From Deltaproteobacteria bacterium (GTDB taxonomy: Bacteria > Myxococcota > JADLHZ01), in the NCBI GenBank assembly GCA_020848545.1, contig JADLHZ010000127.1, positions 1 through 38,873 of the forward strand: 38,873 nucleotides of DNA, in the 5' to 3' direction. The position numbers were made by a program, and so were the translations under genes. Under the pieces are notes generated by a model, which saw nothing but the letters and a program-made list of their open reading frames with translations, ran no database searches and was not told where the DNA came from. This document shows, piece after piece, positions 16,929 through 22,337 of the stretch. Positions within the stretch are counted from its first letter, which is position 1; the number at the start of each line of letters is the position of its first letter.

Positions 16929-17050
16929 CGGCGAAGCTGAAGCGGATCGCCGGACGTGTCCCGATGCTCCTCGTGATGGGGATCTTCCTCGTCGTCGGCA
17001 TGATCATCACGACGGCGCTCACCGGTCCGGCCCGCTTGCGCCGCGGTTGA
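16925..17050 (+). CDS. Tiny one-TM protein (41 residues)
   Basis: Starting at TTG 16925, overlapping the previous stop as TTGA, the frame encodes a basic N-terminus (TAKLKRIAGR), one strong hydrophobic helix (about 13-33) and a basic tail (GPARLRRG). A later ATG at 16963 would leave 28 residues. Its last 32 bases overlap the 3' end of the converging GT9 gene. Coupling, composition and topology support it, but at this size chance cannot be ruled out. Confidence 0.45.
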   Translation: MTAKLKRIAGRVPMLLVMGIFLVVGMIITTALTGPARLRRG

Positions 17051-18152
17051 CCGCGTCCTTTGCCCAAGCAACGACCTCACCCACGATGCGCTCGATCGTC
17101 CGATCGTTGCGTAGATCCAACGCCCGCCTCCCCGGTCCCTCGTGCCCGTAGCGCGAAGGCGGCTCGATGACGAAGCAGACGCAGGTGCGCGCGCCGACCG
17201 CGACGGCGAGGTGCGAGGTGCCGGTGTCGTTTCCGATCATCCCGCGACAAGCGCGAAAGAGCGCGACGAGCTCATCGAGCGTCGACGGGGGCGCCACCGT
17301 CGCAGCCGGGCAAGCGGCGTGCACTTCGTCGGCGAGCGCCCGTTCGCCGGGGCCCCACACGATCGTGACCGCGTAGCCCGCTGCGACGAGCGCGTTGGCG
17401 ATCGCCGCCCACTCGAACGCTTCGACGCGGCGCAACGGCTCCCGTGATCCGATGGCGCAAACGAAGGTGCGATCGGGCCCGGCCGGAGCGGCGGCGGCGA
17501 CGAAGGCGGCGTGCGCGGCATCGAGCGCGCGCAGCGTGTCGTCACGCCGATAGCGCATCGTCTCGACGCGCGTCGCCTTCTTGAACGGCAAGAGCAGCTG
17601 CAAGCGCTGCGCGATCTCGTGCTCCGCTTCTGCCAGCACCGGCACGGTGAAGTGATAGAGGCGCCCGAGCGGCCCGCGATCCGGTCCGACGATCACGCGC
17701 GCCCCGGAGAGCCGGGCGATCAACGGGTGCGTGACGGCGACGCCCGGAAAGCTGCCGGCGTCGAAGCAGAGGTCGAAGCGCTCCTTCCGAATACGCGCGA
17801 TGAGCGAGAACGGCCCGCGCCCGACGCGCCACTTCACGTACGGGATCAGCGCGTCGACGTCGGGCTGGCCATCGAGCACGCGCTGCATCGACTCGTGGCA
17901 GAGCACCGTCGTGTGCGCGCCGGGGAAGGTGCGCTTCAACGACGCCAAGAAGGGCGTGAGCATGAGGAGATTGCCCACGCGCGCGTCGAGGCGGATGACC
18001 AGGATCCGCGGCCGCTCCGGCACGACGAGCGGGCGCCGCGGCAACCACAAGACGATCGACAAGATGTACTGCAGCACGCGCCGGCCGAAGAGCTCGACCG
18101 GCTTCACCCAGCGCGTCAGCGTGCGCCGTAGCTCGGAACGCCGCGCGCTCAC
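17019..18152 (-). CDS. GT9-family glycosyltransferase (heptosyltransferase-like)
   Basis: A 377-residue cytoplasmic glycosyltransferase of the ADP-heptose:LPS heptosyltransferase family. The N-terminal Rossmann domain begins at about residue 48 with ILVIRLDARVGNLLMLTPF, the acceptor-side signature. The C-terminal domain has the nucleotide-sugar site MIGNDTGTSHLAVAVGA. An amphipathic N-terminal stretch with ILSIVLWLP may attach it to the membrane. It probably adds a sugar to lipopolysaccharide core or a related glycolipid; the sugar is unknown. GTG 18152 lies inside a tandem repeat that separates it from the BMC-T gene. It is the last gene of a six-gene minus-strand unit. Confidence 0.88.
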   Translation of the reverse strand: MSARRSELRRTLTRWVKPVELFGRRVLQYILSIVLWLPRRPLVVPERPRILVIRLDARVGNLLMLTPFLASLKRTFPGAHTTVLCHESMQRVLDGQPDVDALIPYVKWRVGRGPFSLIARIRKERFDLCFDAGSFPGVAVTHPLIARLSGARVIVGPDRGPLGRLYHFTVPVLAEAEHEIAQRLQLLLPFKKATRVETMRYRRDDTLRALDAAHAAFVAAAAPAGPDRTFVCAIGSREPLRRVEAFEWAAIANALVAAGYAVTIVWGPGERALADEVHAACPAATVAPPSTLDELVALFRACRGMIGNDTGTSHLAVAVGARTCVCFVIEPPSRYGHEGPGRRALDLRNDRTIERIVGEVVAWAKDAVNRGASGPDR

Positions 18153-18188
18153 AGATGATCGCTCACAGATGATCGCTCACAGATGCTC
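18147..18188. repeat. 14-bp tandem triplicate at a gene junction
   Basis: Three head-to-tail copies of GCTCACAGATGATC (18147-18160, 18161-18174, 18175-18188; the last has one change, C for A at position 12). On the minus strand each copy carries CTGTGAG, a GTGA stop/start overlap. The first copy read holds the stop of the BMC-T gene (18179-18177) and the last holds the GTG of the GT9 gene (18152-18150). Confidence 0.95.
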
Positions 18189-18734
18189 GAGGCGCACGTC
18201 CGGCGACAGGCGCGCGATGATCTCGCTCTGCACGCGCTGCGCGGCCGGCACCGCCGCGGCGCCCGCGGTCGCCGCCGCTTCGACGTCCGCGAGCGTCCCC
18301 GACACGATGAAGTACGCCTTGCCGCCGATGCCACGCGCGATGTGCAGCTTGTGCGCCCGGGCGTTCGTCTCTTTCAGCACGCGATCGAGCGCCCGCAGCG
18401 CCGCGGCGACGCTTGAAAATTCTTGCACCGAGAGCGCCGTCTCTTCGCTGAGCGGCGTGCGCTCGCCGCCGACGAGCGGCACGAGCCCGGGGTGAGCGTC
18501 GGGCAAGTGCAAGGTGTCGAGCAGTCGGTCCGCGGCTGCCGCCTTCGCGGCGAGGAACGCCTCTTCGACATCGCCTTCTCTGCCGGCGAAGAGGATCAGA
18601 AACTTGCCGGGGCTCACCGCCTCGCTCAGCAACACGCGCACGATCGCGCGCTTCGTGAGCGCGTCGAGGGTGACGATGCCGCGGGCGATGCTCTCGAGCT
18701 CGATCAGCGCGAGCGCGGGTGAACCAGGACTCAT
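18177..18734 (-). CDS. Tandem-domain bacterial microcompartment shell protein (BMC-T, PduT-like)
   Basis: A 185-residue protein with two BMC domains, about 6-90 and 100-182. Domain 1 shows the family pattern ALALIELESIARGIVTLDAL, then SPGKFLILFAG and LHLPDAHPGLVPLVGG. Domain 2 shows SVAAALRALDRVLK, LHIARGIGGKAYFIVSG and a helix with ADVEAAATAGAAA. Order, length and the GIGGK and HP...P landmarks agree with PduT, which forms pseudohexameric trimers in shell facets. PduT binds an Fe-S cluster at its pore through the Cys of ICPGK (from memory); here that position is S41, so a cluster is unlikely. No enzyme, BMC-H or BMC-P pentamer gene is in the window, so it may be a satellite gene of a distant locus. 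It sits in an operon with envelope genes. Confidence 0.85.
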   Translation of the reverse strand: MSPGSPALALIELESIARGIVTLDALTKRAIVRVLLSEAVSPGKFLILFAGREGDVEEAFLAAKAAAADRLLDTLHLPDAHPGLVPLVGGERTPLSEETALSVQEFSSVAAALRALDRVLKETNARAHKLHIARGIGGKAYFIVSGTLADVEAAATAGAAAVPAAQRVQSEIIARLSPDVRLEHL

Positions 18735-18746
18735 CGACCTACTTTC

Positions 18747-19334
18747 TCAATCGTCCGAACGCATCAACAAGCGAAACACATAGCCGGCGGTGAGCCCGAT
18801 GAACGCCGCGGGCGCACGCGCGTCGCTCGACACGAGCAAGACTTGCGCGGCGACGCTCCAGCCGCTCTGCCCTTCGAACGCGACGCGCAGTCCGTAGCCG
18901 ATGCCCGGGACGAAGGCAACGCGGCGCACCGTGGCCGGCGCCGTAGTGAAGGTCATCGCCTGCACGCTCAGGTCGAGACCGAGCAGGACGCTGGGCAAGA
19001 TGCGGAGCTGATCGTCAGCGACCTCGAGCCACACCGGCCAGCGCAGATGCAGGAGCAGGTCGCTGCGCATGTCGGTCGACGCCACGTTCACGGCAGTGGT
19101 GCCAGCTTCGGCCTTCGCGCCGAGCGTGCCGACGCGAAAGTCGATCGATGCGGCGACGTAGCGCAATTTTTCGGGCGCCAACAGCACGCGCACGCCGAAC
19201 ACACCGTCGACGGCGTCGCCGATGCCGGTCGAGCGCTGCGCCGCCACGATCTCGGCCGCGCCTTCGAGGGTCAGCGTGAGCCGCGGCGACGCCGTGCTCC
19301 AGCCGACGACGAGGCAGAGGAGCATCACGGGCAT
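18747..19334 (-). CDS. Predicted outer-membrane beta-barrel protein
   Basis: A 195-residue exported protein. ATG 19334 gives a signal peptide (MPVMLLCLVVGWSTAS); a second ATG at 19325 overlaps the upstream stop and is also possible. The mature part alternates hydrophobic and polar residues in about eight stretches (for example VFGVRVLLAPE, YVAASIDFRVGTL, ILPSVLLGLDLSV, YGLRVAFEGQS, GLTAGYVFRLL), as in small eight-stranded barrels. No family was recognised. The gene overlaps the zincin gene and ends 12 bases before the BMC-T start. It carries no catalytic motif. Confidence 0.65.
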   Translation of the reverse strand: MPVMLLCLVVGWSTASPRLTLTLEGAAEIVAAQRSTGIGDAVDGVFGVRVLLAPEKLRYVAASIDFRVGTLGAKAEAGTTAVNVASTDMRSDLLLHLRWPVWLEVADDQLRILPSVLLGLDLSVQAMTFTTAPATVRRVAFVPGIGYGLRVAFEGQSGWSVAAQVLLVSSDARAPAAFIGLTAGYVFRLLMRSDD

Positions 19335-20461
19335 GCGCTGAGCTCGCTCTCGAAGACGCTGAACACGTTCTTCGCGATGCCGCACACCGCCGCGCGATCT
19401 CCGCCTGCGAAGCCGAGGACAATCGCGTTGACGACGAAGGGAAAGGTCACGTCGCGTAGCCGCGTCTCGACCTTGGCGGCGATCGCTTGGTCAGCAGCGA
19501 ACCACGCGGCGATCGTCGGATCACGCCCGACGCTCGCTTGCGCCTGCCACATGAAGCTCGCGAAGCACGAGCCCGGCGGATAGGGATCATATTGATCGCC
19601 GGAGACCGGGCCGCTCGCGTCGAGCCAATCGGCGTCCATCGTGTGCGTGAACGCCGGATTGCGTGTGTCGGCCACGCGCTGCGACAGGCTCGCGGCGATA
19701 AAGTCGGGATCGTCCGCGCCGATCGCGCCGAAGAAGTCCGCGAGCCCTTCGTTCACGGCGCGCAGCCGCAGGATCGATTGAAAGCCTGGCAAGTCGGCCG
19801 CGAGGAACGCCCGCAGCGCCCGCTCACCGAAGACGCGCAGCGCAAACACGCGATGGAAGTACTCGTGAAAGACGACGCCCTTGTTCATGCTGAACGGCAC
19901 CTTCTCCAGGTGCTCCATCGGCAAGACCAAGAAGCCGTCGACCAGCTGAAAGTAGGCGGCGTTGTCGGTGGCGCTGAGGTTGAACTTCTCGAGGCTGTCG
20001 GCGTTCGGATAATAATAGACGGGCGCGGGCCCCGCGGTGGCGCTCGGATCGACCGCGAGCGCGGCGAAGAACTCCTGCGCCTCGTCGATCGACCGGTACG
20101 CCGTCACGAGGTTCAAGGTGTCGAAGTCGAGCGGCCGGTAGACGCCGCCGTTCAGCGCGAAGCGCGGGCGCACGCTCGTGCGACGCTCGCCGATGACGAC
20201 CGCGCGCAGCTCCGAGACTTTGGCGTCGCAGTCCAAGCCGTTGAGCGCGCAGCCGCGGCTGAGATCGAACTCGATCTTCAGCTCGGCGCCGGCCGCGAAG
20301 GTCATGCGCTCGCCTTCCAGGGTCGCGAGCGACTTCACGCGGTGCAAGGTCACTTCTTCGACGCGGTGCACGCCGTCGGCGCCGCGGACGAGCGCTTCGG
20401 TGCGGACGTCGCCGGCGATCGGCCCGCACGCGCAGAAGAGCAAGGCGCACCACGCTCTCAT
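19325..20461 (-). CDS. Exported zincin-like metalloprotease
   Basis: A 378-residue protein with an N-terminal export signal (MRAWCALLFCACG); a lipid anchor at C12 is possible but the lipobox is weak. The zinc motif HEYFH is at 199-203 and NEGLADFFG at 237-245 provides E238 as a likely third ligand, a gluzincin arrangement. The first 140 residues are beta-rich with a Cys pair (C71, C78). It would act in the periplasm or at the surface. ATG 20461 overlaps the rhomboid stop as ATGA; a longer frame upstream is antisense-like and was discarded. The family and substrate are not known to me. Pairing with a rhomboid protease hints at surface-protein processing (inference). Confidence 0.75.
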   Translation of the reverse strand: MRAWCALLFCACGPIAGDVRTEALVRGADGVHRVEEVTLHRVKSLATLEGERMTFAAGAELKIEFDLSRGCALNGLDCDAKVSELRAVVIGERRTSVRPRFALNGGVYRPLDFDTLNLVTAYRSIDEAQEFFAALAVDPSATAGPAPVYYYPNADSLEKFNLSATDNAAYFQLVDGFLVLPMEHLEKVPFSMNKGVVFHEYFHRVFALRVFGERALRAFLAADLPGFQSILRLRAVNEGLADFFGAIGADDPDFIAASLSQRVADTRNPAFTHTMDADWLDASGPVSGDQYDPYPPGSCFASFMWQAQASVGRDPTIAAWFAADQAIAAKVETRLRDVTFPFVVNAIVLGFAGGDRAAVCGIAKNVFSVFESELSACP

Positions 20462-21432
20462 CGCGCCGCCCACAACGCGCCCATCACGACCGCCGCCGCG
20501 ACGACGAAGAGCCACGCGTCGCGCCGCGTCTTCGTGCGCTCGCCGACGACACCGACGAGCACGCCGGCGAGGAAGCCGAAGACGTGCGCGGCCATGTCTG
20601 GAGTGCTCACCGGCAACAGCCGCGGCATCGTCCGCAGCTCTTCGATCGTGGCGCCGAACGCCGTGAGCCCGAGGTACGCGAGCGCCGCGCCGAGCACCGC
20701 GCGCCGCCGATAGCGCGGATCCGAGCGCTGGCTCGCCGCGTAGATCGCGGCGCCGACGAGCACGCCGAGCACGCCGAACACACCGCCCGACGCGCCGACT
20801 TGAAAGAACGGCGCGCCGTGCCAAAGCACGCTCGCCACGTTGCCGAGCGCGGCGCTGGTCACGAAGCCGAAGACGAAGTGCCCGACGCCGAGGCGCACGG
20901 CGCAGAAGTAGCCGAGAGGCAGCAAGAACGAGACGTTGCTCATCAGGTGTCCGAGATCACCGTGGAGCAAGGGCCCGCCGAAGATGCGCCACCACTCCCC
21001 GGCGAAGATGCGCTCCGCGTCGACACGCAGCTTCAACGAGACGTCCGATCGAAAGCCGGGCGTGCGCAAGAAGACGAGGATGAGCAGGGCGTTCAACGCC
21101 AAGGTGCCGAGCGCGGCGATGCCGGGGCGCGTCCGATGCTGCGCCTCGCTGGCCATCGCCTGCACGTCCTTCTTGCGCGCCAGCTCTTCTTCGCTCTGCG
21201 CGTCGATCACGGCGAGCGCCCGATCAGCGTCCTCTGACGAGACGACGAGGCAGAAGCGCTCCGGCCACTCGTCGTGCGCGGCGGCGCCTTCGCTGAACGG
21301 CAGCAGCTCCTCGCGGCGATCGACCACGCGGTGCGGGAGGGAGATCGCCGACAGCGTGAGGTTCCAGCTCTGCGCCTCGGCGCCATTGTCGGTGCCGGCG
21401 ATGACGATCAGCGCGTCGGGAGGGTACGCCAT
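20458..21432 (-). CDS. Rhomboid-family intramembrane serine protease
   Basis: A 324-residue membrane protease. The cytoplasmic N-terminus (1 to about 100) contains a small alpha/beta domain (SWNLTLSAISLPHRVVDRR ... FCLVVSSEDADRALAVI) like the DUF2007-type fold. The six-TM rhomboid core follows: WWRIFGGPLLHGDLGHLMSN gives the oxyanion helper H162 and N166, GASGG carries catalytic S215, and MAAHVFGF carries H283, so the Ser-His dyad is complete. It cleaves TM helices of membrane proteins. Its ATG directly follows the acyltransferase TAG with no gap, and its stop overlaps the zincin start (ATGA). Confidence 0.92.
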   Translation of the reverse strand: MAYPPDALIVIAGTDNGAEAQSWNLTLSAISLPHRVVDRREELLPFSEGAAAHDEWPERFCLVVSSEDADRALAVIDAQSEEELARKKDVQAMASEAQHRTRPGIAALGTLALNALLILVFLRTPGFRSDVSLKLRVDAERIFAGEWWRIFGGPLLHGDLGHLMSNVSFLLPLGYFCAVRLGVGHFVFGFVTSAALGNVASVLWHGAPFFQVGASGGVFGVLGVLVGAAIYAASQRSDPRYRRRAVLGAALAYLGLTAFGATIEELRTMPRLLPVSTPDMAAHVFGFLAGVLVGVVGERTKTRRDAWLFVVAAAVVMGALWAAR

Positions 21433-22245
21433 CTAGCCGAGGTGCTTGTCCGGATCGGCGAGCACTTCGCGCAGCGTCGTACACAGCTTCGCCGCATGCA
21501 CGCCGTCGACGACGCGGTGATCGAAGGTGGCGCAGAGCTTGAGCATCGGCTTGATGACGACTTGACCGTTCTCGACGACGGGCCGCTCGCGCACCGCCGG
21601 CACCAAGAGGATCATCATGCAACGCGCGATCGGGGTGAGCGGCGCGTAGGCTTCGTCGACGCCGAACATGCCGAGGCTCGTCACCATCGCCGAGCCGAAG
21701 GGGTCGCGCGGCATGCCCGAGCCCGACATGTCGATGTTGAGCTCGTTGGTGAACAAGCTGGCGAGCGCCAGGAAGGGCCGCAGGATCCACCACGGCAGCG
21801 ACGACATCATGCCCTTCGACTTCTTGAACTTCGGATCTTCGTTCTTGCGAATCCTCTGCGAGGCTTGCTTCAGATCGCTCGCGAGGTCCGTCAGCGGGAC
21901 AGCGTCCGCCGCCGTGATGCGGTGGCCCGAGAGATCGCGGCCGTCGTCGCTCGTCACTTGAATGAAGAGATCGACGGTCTTGCGCCGCTCGAGCTTGCCC
22001 CAGAAGCGCACGCGCGCGTTGATGTCCGGGTGCTTGGCGATCGACACGGCGAGCGCCCTGGCCATGAGGTGCGTGACGGTTGGCTTCGCTTCGTTGCCTT
22101 CGTACTTCTTCAGAAACGCGAGCGGCACCGTCATGTCGATCTCGGCGTTGCCGTAGATCTGCGAGTCGTTCGGCCGGATCCACATCGCAGCGGCCATTCG
22201 ACGAAACGCGCTCTGCCGCTCGAGCTTGATGAAGTTGCTGGCCAT
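21433..22245 (-). CDS. Stand-alone 2-oxoacid dehydrogenase acyltransferase (E2) catalytic domain
   Basis: A 270-residue protein with the CAT-like fold of lipoamide acyltransferases (pyruvate, 2-oxoglutarate or branched-chain E2). The catalytic motif DHRVVDG (H243, D247) is intact. The usual N-terminal lipoyl and E3-binding domains are missing, so it is about 150-250 residues shorter than a normal E2 and cannot carry its own acyl-lipoyl group. It may be a non-core acyltransferase acting on CoA or on another carrier. An insertion near 150-190 has a hydrophobic stretch (WWILRPFLALASLF) that may bind membrane or lipid. ATG 22245 fits the family start. First gene of the six-gene minus-strand unit. 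Confidence 0.85.
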   Translation of the reverse strand: MASNFIKLERQSAFRRMAAAMWIRPNDSQIYGNAEIDMTVPLAFLKKYEGNEAKPTVTHLMARALAVSIAKHPDINARVRFWGKLERRKTVDLFIQVTSDDGRDLSGHRITAADAVPLTDLASDLKQASQRIRKNEDPKFKKSKGMMSSLPWWILRPFLALASLFTNELNIDMSGSGMPRDPFGSAMVTSLGMFGVDEAYAPLTPIARCMMILLVPAVRERPVVENGQVVIKPMLKLCATFDHRVVDGVHAAKLCTTLREVLADPDKHLG

Positions 22246-22337
22246 GGCCCTCAGATGCCCCGAACGTGCTGGCGGCGCAAGAAGAGGGCGACTCCGCGGG
22301 CGCACATGGCATACTCGCTGGGCGAGGGTTCCCGCCC

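What the first reader, a model, noticed from the sequence alone, without database searches (positions are those of the whole stretch)
18177..18734. PduT-like microcompartment shell protein in an envelope-gene operon, with no other BMC gene near
Two BMC domains with PduT landmarks (SPGKF, HPGLVP, GIGGK) are visible. The five other genes of this coupled operon encode an E2-type acyltransferase, rhomboid protease, zincin, barrel protein and GT9 glycosyltransferase, none of which is a known BMC component. The PduT Fe-S cysteine position is Ser (S41). Known biology: some genomes keep BMC-T genes in satellite loci away from the main BMC operon (Haliangium, from memory). Either this is such a satellite gene, or a BMC-fold protein reused outside a compartment.
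Basis: partly seen in the sequence, partly recalled or inferred. Interest (0 to 1): 0.75.

Follow-up and report, generated by a model that had tools for sequence, protein, structure and literature searches.

The report
Relocated shell-protein gene of a microcompartment
The gene encodes an ordinary trimeric shell protein of a bacterial metabolic microcompartment whose other parts are encoded elsewhere in the same genome; in many relatives the same gene sits at the end of the main shell operon, so this is a displaced member of a known system and not a new use of the fold.

Summary
In detail: 18177-18734 (-) encodes a 185-aa protein with two PF00936 domains (8.5e-24), fifth of six tightly spaced genes, with no other BMC gene on the contig. 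Sequence and fold match Salmonella PduT and Haliangium ochraceum BMC-T1 (HO-5812). The 'satellite gene' reading is supported; 'BMC fold reused outside a compartment' is not. The same genome carries a compact shell operon on contig C45 (double-stacked BMC-T2, BMC-H, BMC-P, aldehyde dehydrogenase), an EutB-EutC-EutL-type module on C22 and an acetate kinase-PduL fusion on C7. In about 14 related loci the operon reads T2-H-P-AldDH-T1, with T1 the ortholog of the window gene; here LptE overlaps the end of AldDH and the T1 place is empty. T1 never occurred without BMC-P in 97 same-phylum genomes (34/34 against 1/63). T1 has left the operon in several other lineages too, once into a conserved MoxR/DUF58 operon. 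Homologs of three neighbours tested (E2-type acyltransferase, rhomboid, zincin) are not clustered with each other or with T1 in relatives. S41 is Ser or Thr in all T1 orthologs of this type; Cys appears only in another BMC type and beside PduS-like genes. New member of a known kind; low interest.

The parts
18177..18734 (-). BMC-T1 / PduT-like trimeric shell protein, 185 aa, two PF00936 domains, Ser at the pore position that is Cys in PduT
18612..18614 (-). codon of S41, position of the PduT 4Fe-4S cysteine (C38 in PduT)
18140..18190 (-). junction with the GT9 gene: a 14-bp unit (CATCTGTGAGCGAT) repeated head to tail, carrying the BMC-T stop and the GT9 GTG start
   Evidence: sequence shown; boundaries approximate
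17019..18152 (-). GT9 heptosyltransferase-like gene downstream in the operon; not a BMC part
18747..19334 (-). 195-aa small secreted/barrel-like protein upstream; no Pfam match; not a BMC part
19325..20461 (-). 378-aa HExxH (HEYFH) putative zincin with lipoprotein-like N-terminus; no Pfam match; not a BMC part
20458..21432 (-). rhomboid protease; not a BMC part
21433..22305 (-). stand-alone 2-oxoacid dehydrogenase-type (E2) acyltransferase; not a BMC part

Best explanation
The gene is the BMC-T1 (single-layer, PduT-like) shell gene of an H. ochraceum-like metabolosome. It has moved out of the main shell operon (now on contig C45: BMC-T2, BMC-H, BMC-P, aldehyde dehydrogenase) into an unrelated operon. 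Shown: domain content, fold, orthology to the gene that follows AldDH in relatives, the empty place in the C45 operon, strict co-occurrence with BMC-P. Inferred: the product forms a trimer that takes a hexamer place in the facets of this shell and offers a small Ser-lined central pore for metabolites and no Fe-S cluster. Inferred for the pathway: ethanolamine to acetaldehyde (EutBC on C22), to acetyl-CoA (AldDH on C45), to acetyl phosphate and acetate (the AckA-PduL fusion on C7). Its expression is then set by the host operon, apart from the rest of the shell.
For: PF00936 twice. Best solved relatives by sequence include PduT 3pac, 8.2e-30, and HO BMC-T1 5dih, 8.7e-24; AlphaFold model pLDDT 85.1, Foldseek matches to PduT (3pac, 3n79) and HO BMC-T1 (6n06, 5dih), TM about 0.8. 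Own genome: BMC-T2 (best PDB match HO-5816, 4.4e-87), BMC-H, BMC-P, AldDH on C45, followed at once by LptE. Relatives: T2-H-P-AldDH-T1 in L040-L047, L049, L053, L054, L067, L068 and, in part, L064 and L070. Where T1 is a satellite, the main locus shows the same T2-H-P-AldDH with no T1 in the flank that is held (L174-L179, L183). Co-occurrence of T1 with BMC-P: 34/34 against 1/63. The nearest rows to the window protein in the tree by path are main-operon T1s. EutB, EutC, EutL-type BMC-T on C22 and AckA-PduL on C7. Satellite shell genes are established for BMCs (PMC8217296, PMC4207490, PMC5853843).
Against: Only one BMC-P was found in this genome where most relatives with the gene have three, so the shell may be unusual or the assembly incomplete. 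No genome of the same family or order was available, so the relocation itself is seen in one genome. The place of the window protein inside the T1 tree is unresolved. Trimer formation and shell incorporation are not tested.
Confidence: 0.92

Rival explanations
1. The BMC-fold trimer has been reused in envelope biology with its operon neighbours (acyltransferase, rhomboid, zincin, barrel, GT9), outside any compartment.
For: Tight spacing inside an operon of envelope-like genes.
Against: The genome has a shell operon that lacks just this gene; the subfamily never occurs without BMC-P in 97 genomes; homologs of E2, rhomboid and zincin in relatives are not next to each other nor to T1.
Confidence: 0.03
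2. The gene is a decaying or recently captured extra copy that no longer serves the shell.
For: It lies outside the shell operon; long end branch in the tree (1.06); a 14-bp tandem repeat marks its 3' junction.
Against: The frame is intact, GC3 0.876 matches neighbours 0.84-0.91 and the C45 operon; landmarks and pore motif are kept; it is the only T1 in the genome.
Confidence: 0.03
3. Misassembly or contamination placed the gene on this contig.
For: Draft genome of 163 contigs, 1.83% estimated contamination.
Against: The gene is internal to a 38.9-kb contig, co-directional and tightly spaced with its neighbours, with base composition like its neighbours and C45; its absence from the C45 operon fits relocation.
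Confidence: 0.02

Closest known systems
Haliangium ochraceum BMC-T1 (HO-5812; PDB 5dih, 6n06)
   Same: Two fused BMC domains, Ser at the pore position (engineered to Cys in BMC-T1-S55C, PMC6696605), same fold; relatives keep the gene directly after AldDH in a T2-H-P-AldDH-T1 operon
   Different: Window gene is outside the shell operon; about 38% identical in the structural alignment; genome shows one BMC-P, not three
PduT of Salmonella (3pac; C38S mutant 3n79)
   Same: Best sequence match (8.2e-30), same fold and loop motifs
   Different: Ser in place of the 4Fe-4S cysteine; no PduS-like gene beside it
Satellite BMC loci (Axen 2014, Sutter 2021; CcmK satellites in beta-cyanobacteria)
   Same: Shell gene distal from a main locus with BMC-H and BMC-P
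   Different: Here the neighbours are unrelated co-directional genes

Membership tests
BMC-T shell protein (tandem PF00936) | two BMC domains in one chain | tested here: met
BMC-T shell protein (tandem PF00936) | fold of the trimeric shell proteins | tested here: met
   (monomer model only)
BMC-T shell protein (tandem PF00936) | forms a trimer and enters a shell | not testable with these tools
   needs protein work
PduT sensu stricto | 4Fe-4S cysteine at the pore | tested here: not met
   Ser at position 41
PduT sensu stricto | PduS partner beside it | tested here: not met
   none in the operon; not searched genome-wide
HO BMC-T1 (HO-5812 type) | ortholog of the gene that follows AldDH in T2-H-P-AldDH-T1 loci | tested here: met
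HO BMC-T1 (HO-5812 type) | Ser/Thr at the pore position | tested here: met
   S or T in 25 of 25 T1 rows of this type
HO-type BMC (whole compartment) | BMC-H, double-stacked BMC-T and AldDH in one locus | tested here: met
HO-type BMC (whole compartment) | BMC-P triplet (PMC8217296) | tested here: not met
   one PF03319 match in the held assembly
Satellite BMC locus | shell gene(s) distal from a main locus holding BMC-H and BMC-P in the same genome | tested here: met

The most novel reading that the evidence does not exclude
BMC-T1 is a mobile regulatory part of the HO-like shell: it has left the shell operon several times and settled in operons with other regulation (here an operon with envelope-like genes, elsewhere a conserved MoxR/DUF58 operon), so that shell permeability follows other cell states, or T1 trimers have a second role there.
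Probability: 0.15. Interest if true: 0.5.

Novelty: new member of a known kind. Interest (0 to 1): 0.25.

Why it matters
It removes a candidate for a BMC fold working outside a compartment and gives a clear case of a shell gene leaving its operon. The repeated departure of T1, including one that is conserved over four families in a MoxR/DUF58 operon, is a testable hint that expression of the pore-bearing trimer is uncoupled from the rest of the shell.

Tried and rejected
Rhomboid, E2 and zincin searches in 97 genomes to find the operon without BMC-T: homologs exist but are not clustered; GT9 and barrel were only blasted against the loci held, not searched genome-wide. The genome-contig scan with the single protein gave two distant loci only. 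LptE and HolA, which follow the C45 operon here, do not flank the BMC loci of relatives, so the point of departure cannot be dated from flanks. PF01791 aldolases exist on C161 and C123, but C161 and C123 carry no BMC gene and no targeting extension was evident on the C161 one. A literature search for BMC-T with MoxR gave nothing relevant. A first attempt to read the C45 BMC-P used a wrong frame; one search has the corrected one (2230-2523).

Full report
Observation. It is the fifth of six minus-strand genes: E2-type acyltransferase, rhomboid, HExxH zincin, small barrel-like protein, BMC-T, GT9; the gaps around BMC-T are 12 and 24 bp. Phmmer against the PDB gives PduT (3pac, 8.2e-30) and H. ochraceum BMC-T1 (5dih, 8.7e-24). 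An AlphaFold monomer model (pLDDT 85.1) matches the same structures by Foldseek.

The rest of the compartment. The genome (7.99 Mb, 163 contigs, estimated 100% complete) has further BMC genes on two other contigs. C45 holds a compact operon: BMC-T2 (best PDB match HO-5816, 4.4e-87), BMC-H, BMC-P, aldehyde dehydrogenase, with LptE overlapping the AldDH end and HolA further on. C22 holds EutB, EutC and an EutL-type BMC-T, the 'EUT module' satellite described by Sutter et al. for HO and SPU loci (PMC8217296). C7 holds a fused acetate kinase-PduL. An ethanolamine-to-acetate route is therefore encoded, though in pieces; that the pieces share one compartment is inference.

The missing gene. The window protein has a match in 34 of 97 same-phylum genomes, its own included. 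In L040-L047, L049, L053, L054, L067, L068 and in the partial loci L064 and L070 it lies directly or closely after AldDH, in the order T2-H-P-AldDH-T1; the C45 operon is the same without the last gene. In genomes with T1 elsewhere, the main locus shows the same T2-H-P-AldDH with no T1 in the flank held (in L180-L182 little or nothing beyond AldDH is held). T1 and BMC-P co-occur: 34 of 34 T1 genomes have PF03319, against 1 of 63 without T1 (Fisher p 2e-25, not corrected for kinship). This is strong evidence that T1 serves the shell wherever its gene lies.

How often did T1 move? In the tree satellites fall in separate places: the MoxR/DUF58-linked clade of families f15, f17, f19 and f20 (support 100/100), the f21 pair with a nearby locus, G079, the PduS-linked ones, and the window. 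The tree is poorly resolved around the window, whose nearest rows by path are main-operon T1s. The MoxR link rests on gene order in five loci and on Pfam for one of them (L058); L072 was grouped with them on sequence and its neighbours were not read.

Neighbours. Rhomboid, E2 and zincin homologs are common in the phylum, but in the stretches fetched around their best matches none of the other operon genes is found. The association with BMC-T is thus seen only in this genome; no genome of the same family was available.

Pore residue. Position 41 is Ser or Thr in all T1 rows of this type (25 of 25), and Cys in the seven f4-family loci of another BMC type and in L052; L113 also has Cys. L052 and L113 have a PduS/RnfC-like gene beside BMC-T. 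H. ochraceum BMC-T1 has Ser there; the engineered S55C form binds a 4Fe-4S cluster (PMC6696605). So Ser is the normal state, and an Fe-S role is unlikely.

Verdict. A satellite BMC-T1 gene of an HO-like metabolosome: known kind, uncommon address. The gap that remains is the single BMC-P, where most relatives with T1 have three; by the published definition (BMC-P triplet) the compartment as a whole is HO-like and not a strict HO member.

Noticed in passing
L056 7432-8013, L057 9763-10389, L058 9809-10423, L059 9332-10096, L065 9118-9705: In four families of the phylum the T1 shell gene lies directly next to or near the head of a MoxR ATPase / DUF58-vWA operon (with a redoxin-like gene between them in L058); the T1 proteins form one clade (100/100) and the five genomes have BMC-H and BMC-P elsewhere.
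   Followed up: partly
L007 2230-2523 (only PF03319 match in the window's genome): Only one BMC-P gene in the assembly; most T1-bearing relatives have three, two of them usually in tandem on another contig.
   Followed up: partly
L146 8326-10164 (-): Acetate kinase and PduL-type phosphotransacylase fused in one 613-aa frame.
   Followed up: partly
L008 4715-7688: EutB, EutC and EutL-type BMC-T module; the EutC N-terminus resembles an encapsulation peptide (by eye).
   Followed up: partly
window 18140-18190: A 14-bp unit repeated in tandem at the BMC-T/GT9 junction contains both the stop of one gene and the start of the next; it may have split a former GTGA overlap.
   Followed up: no
L052 4137-6147 and L113 5628-7589: PduT-like BMC-T with the Fe-S cysteine beside a PduS/RnfC-like gene, outside a main shell operon in L052; a probable electron-transfer pair.
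   Followed up: partly
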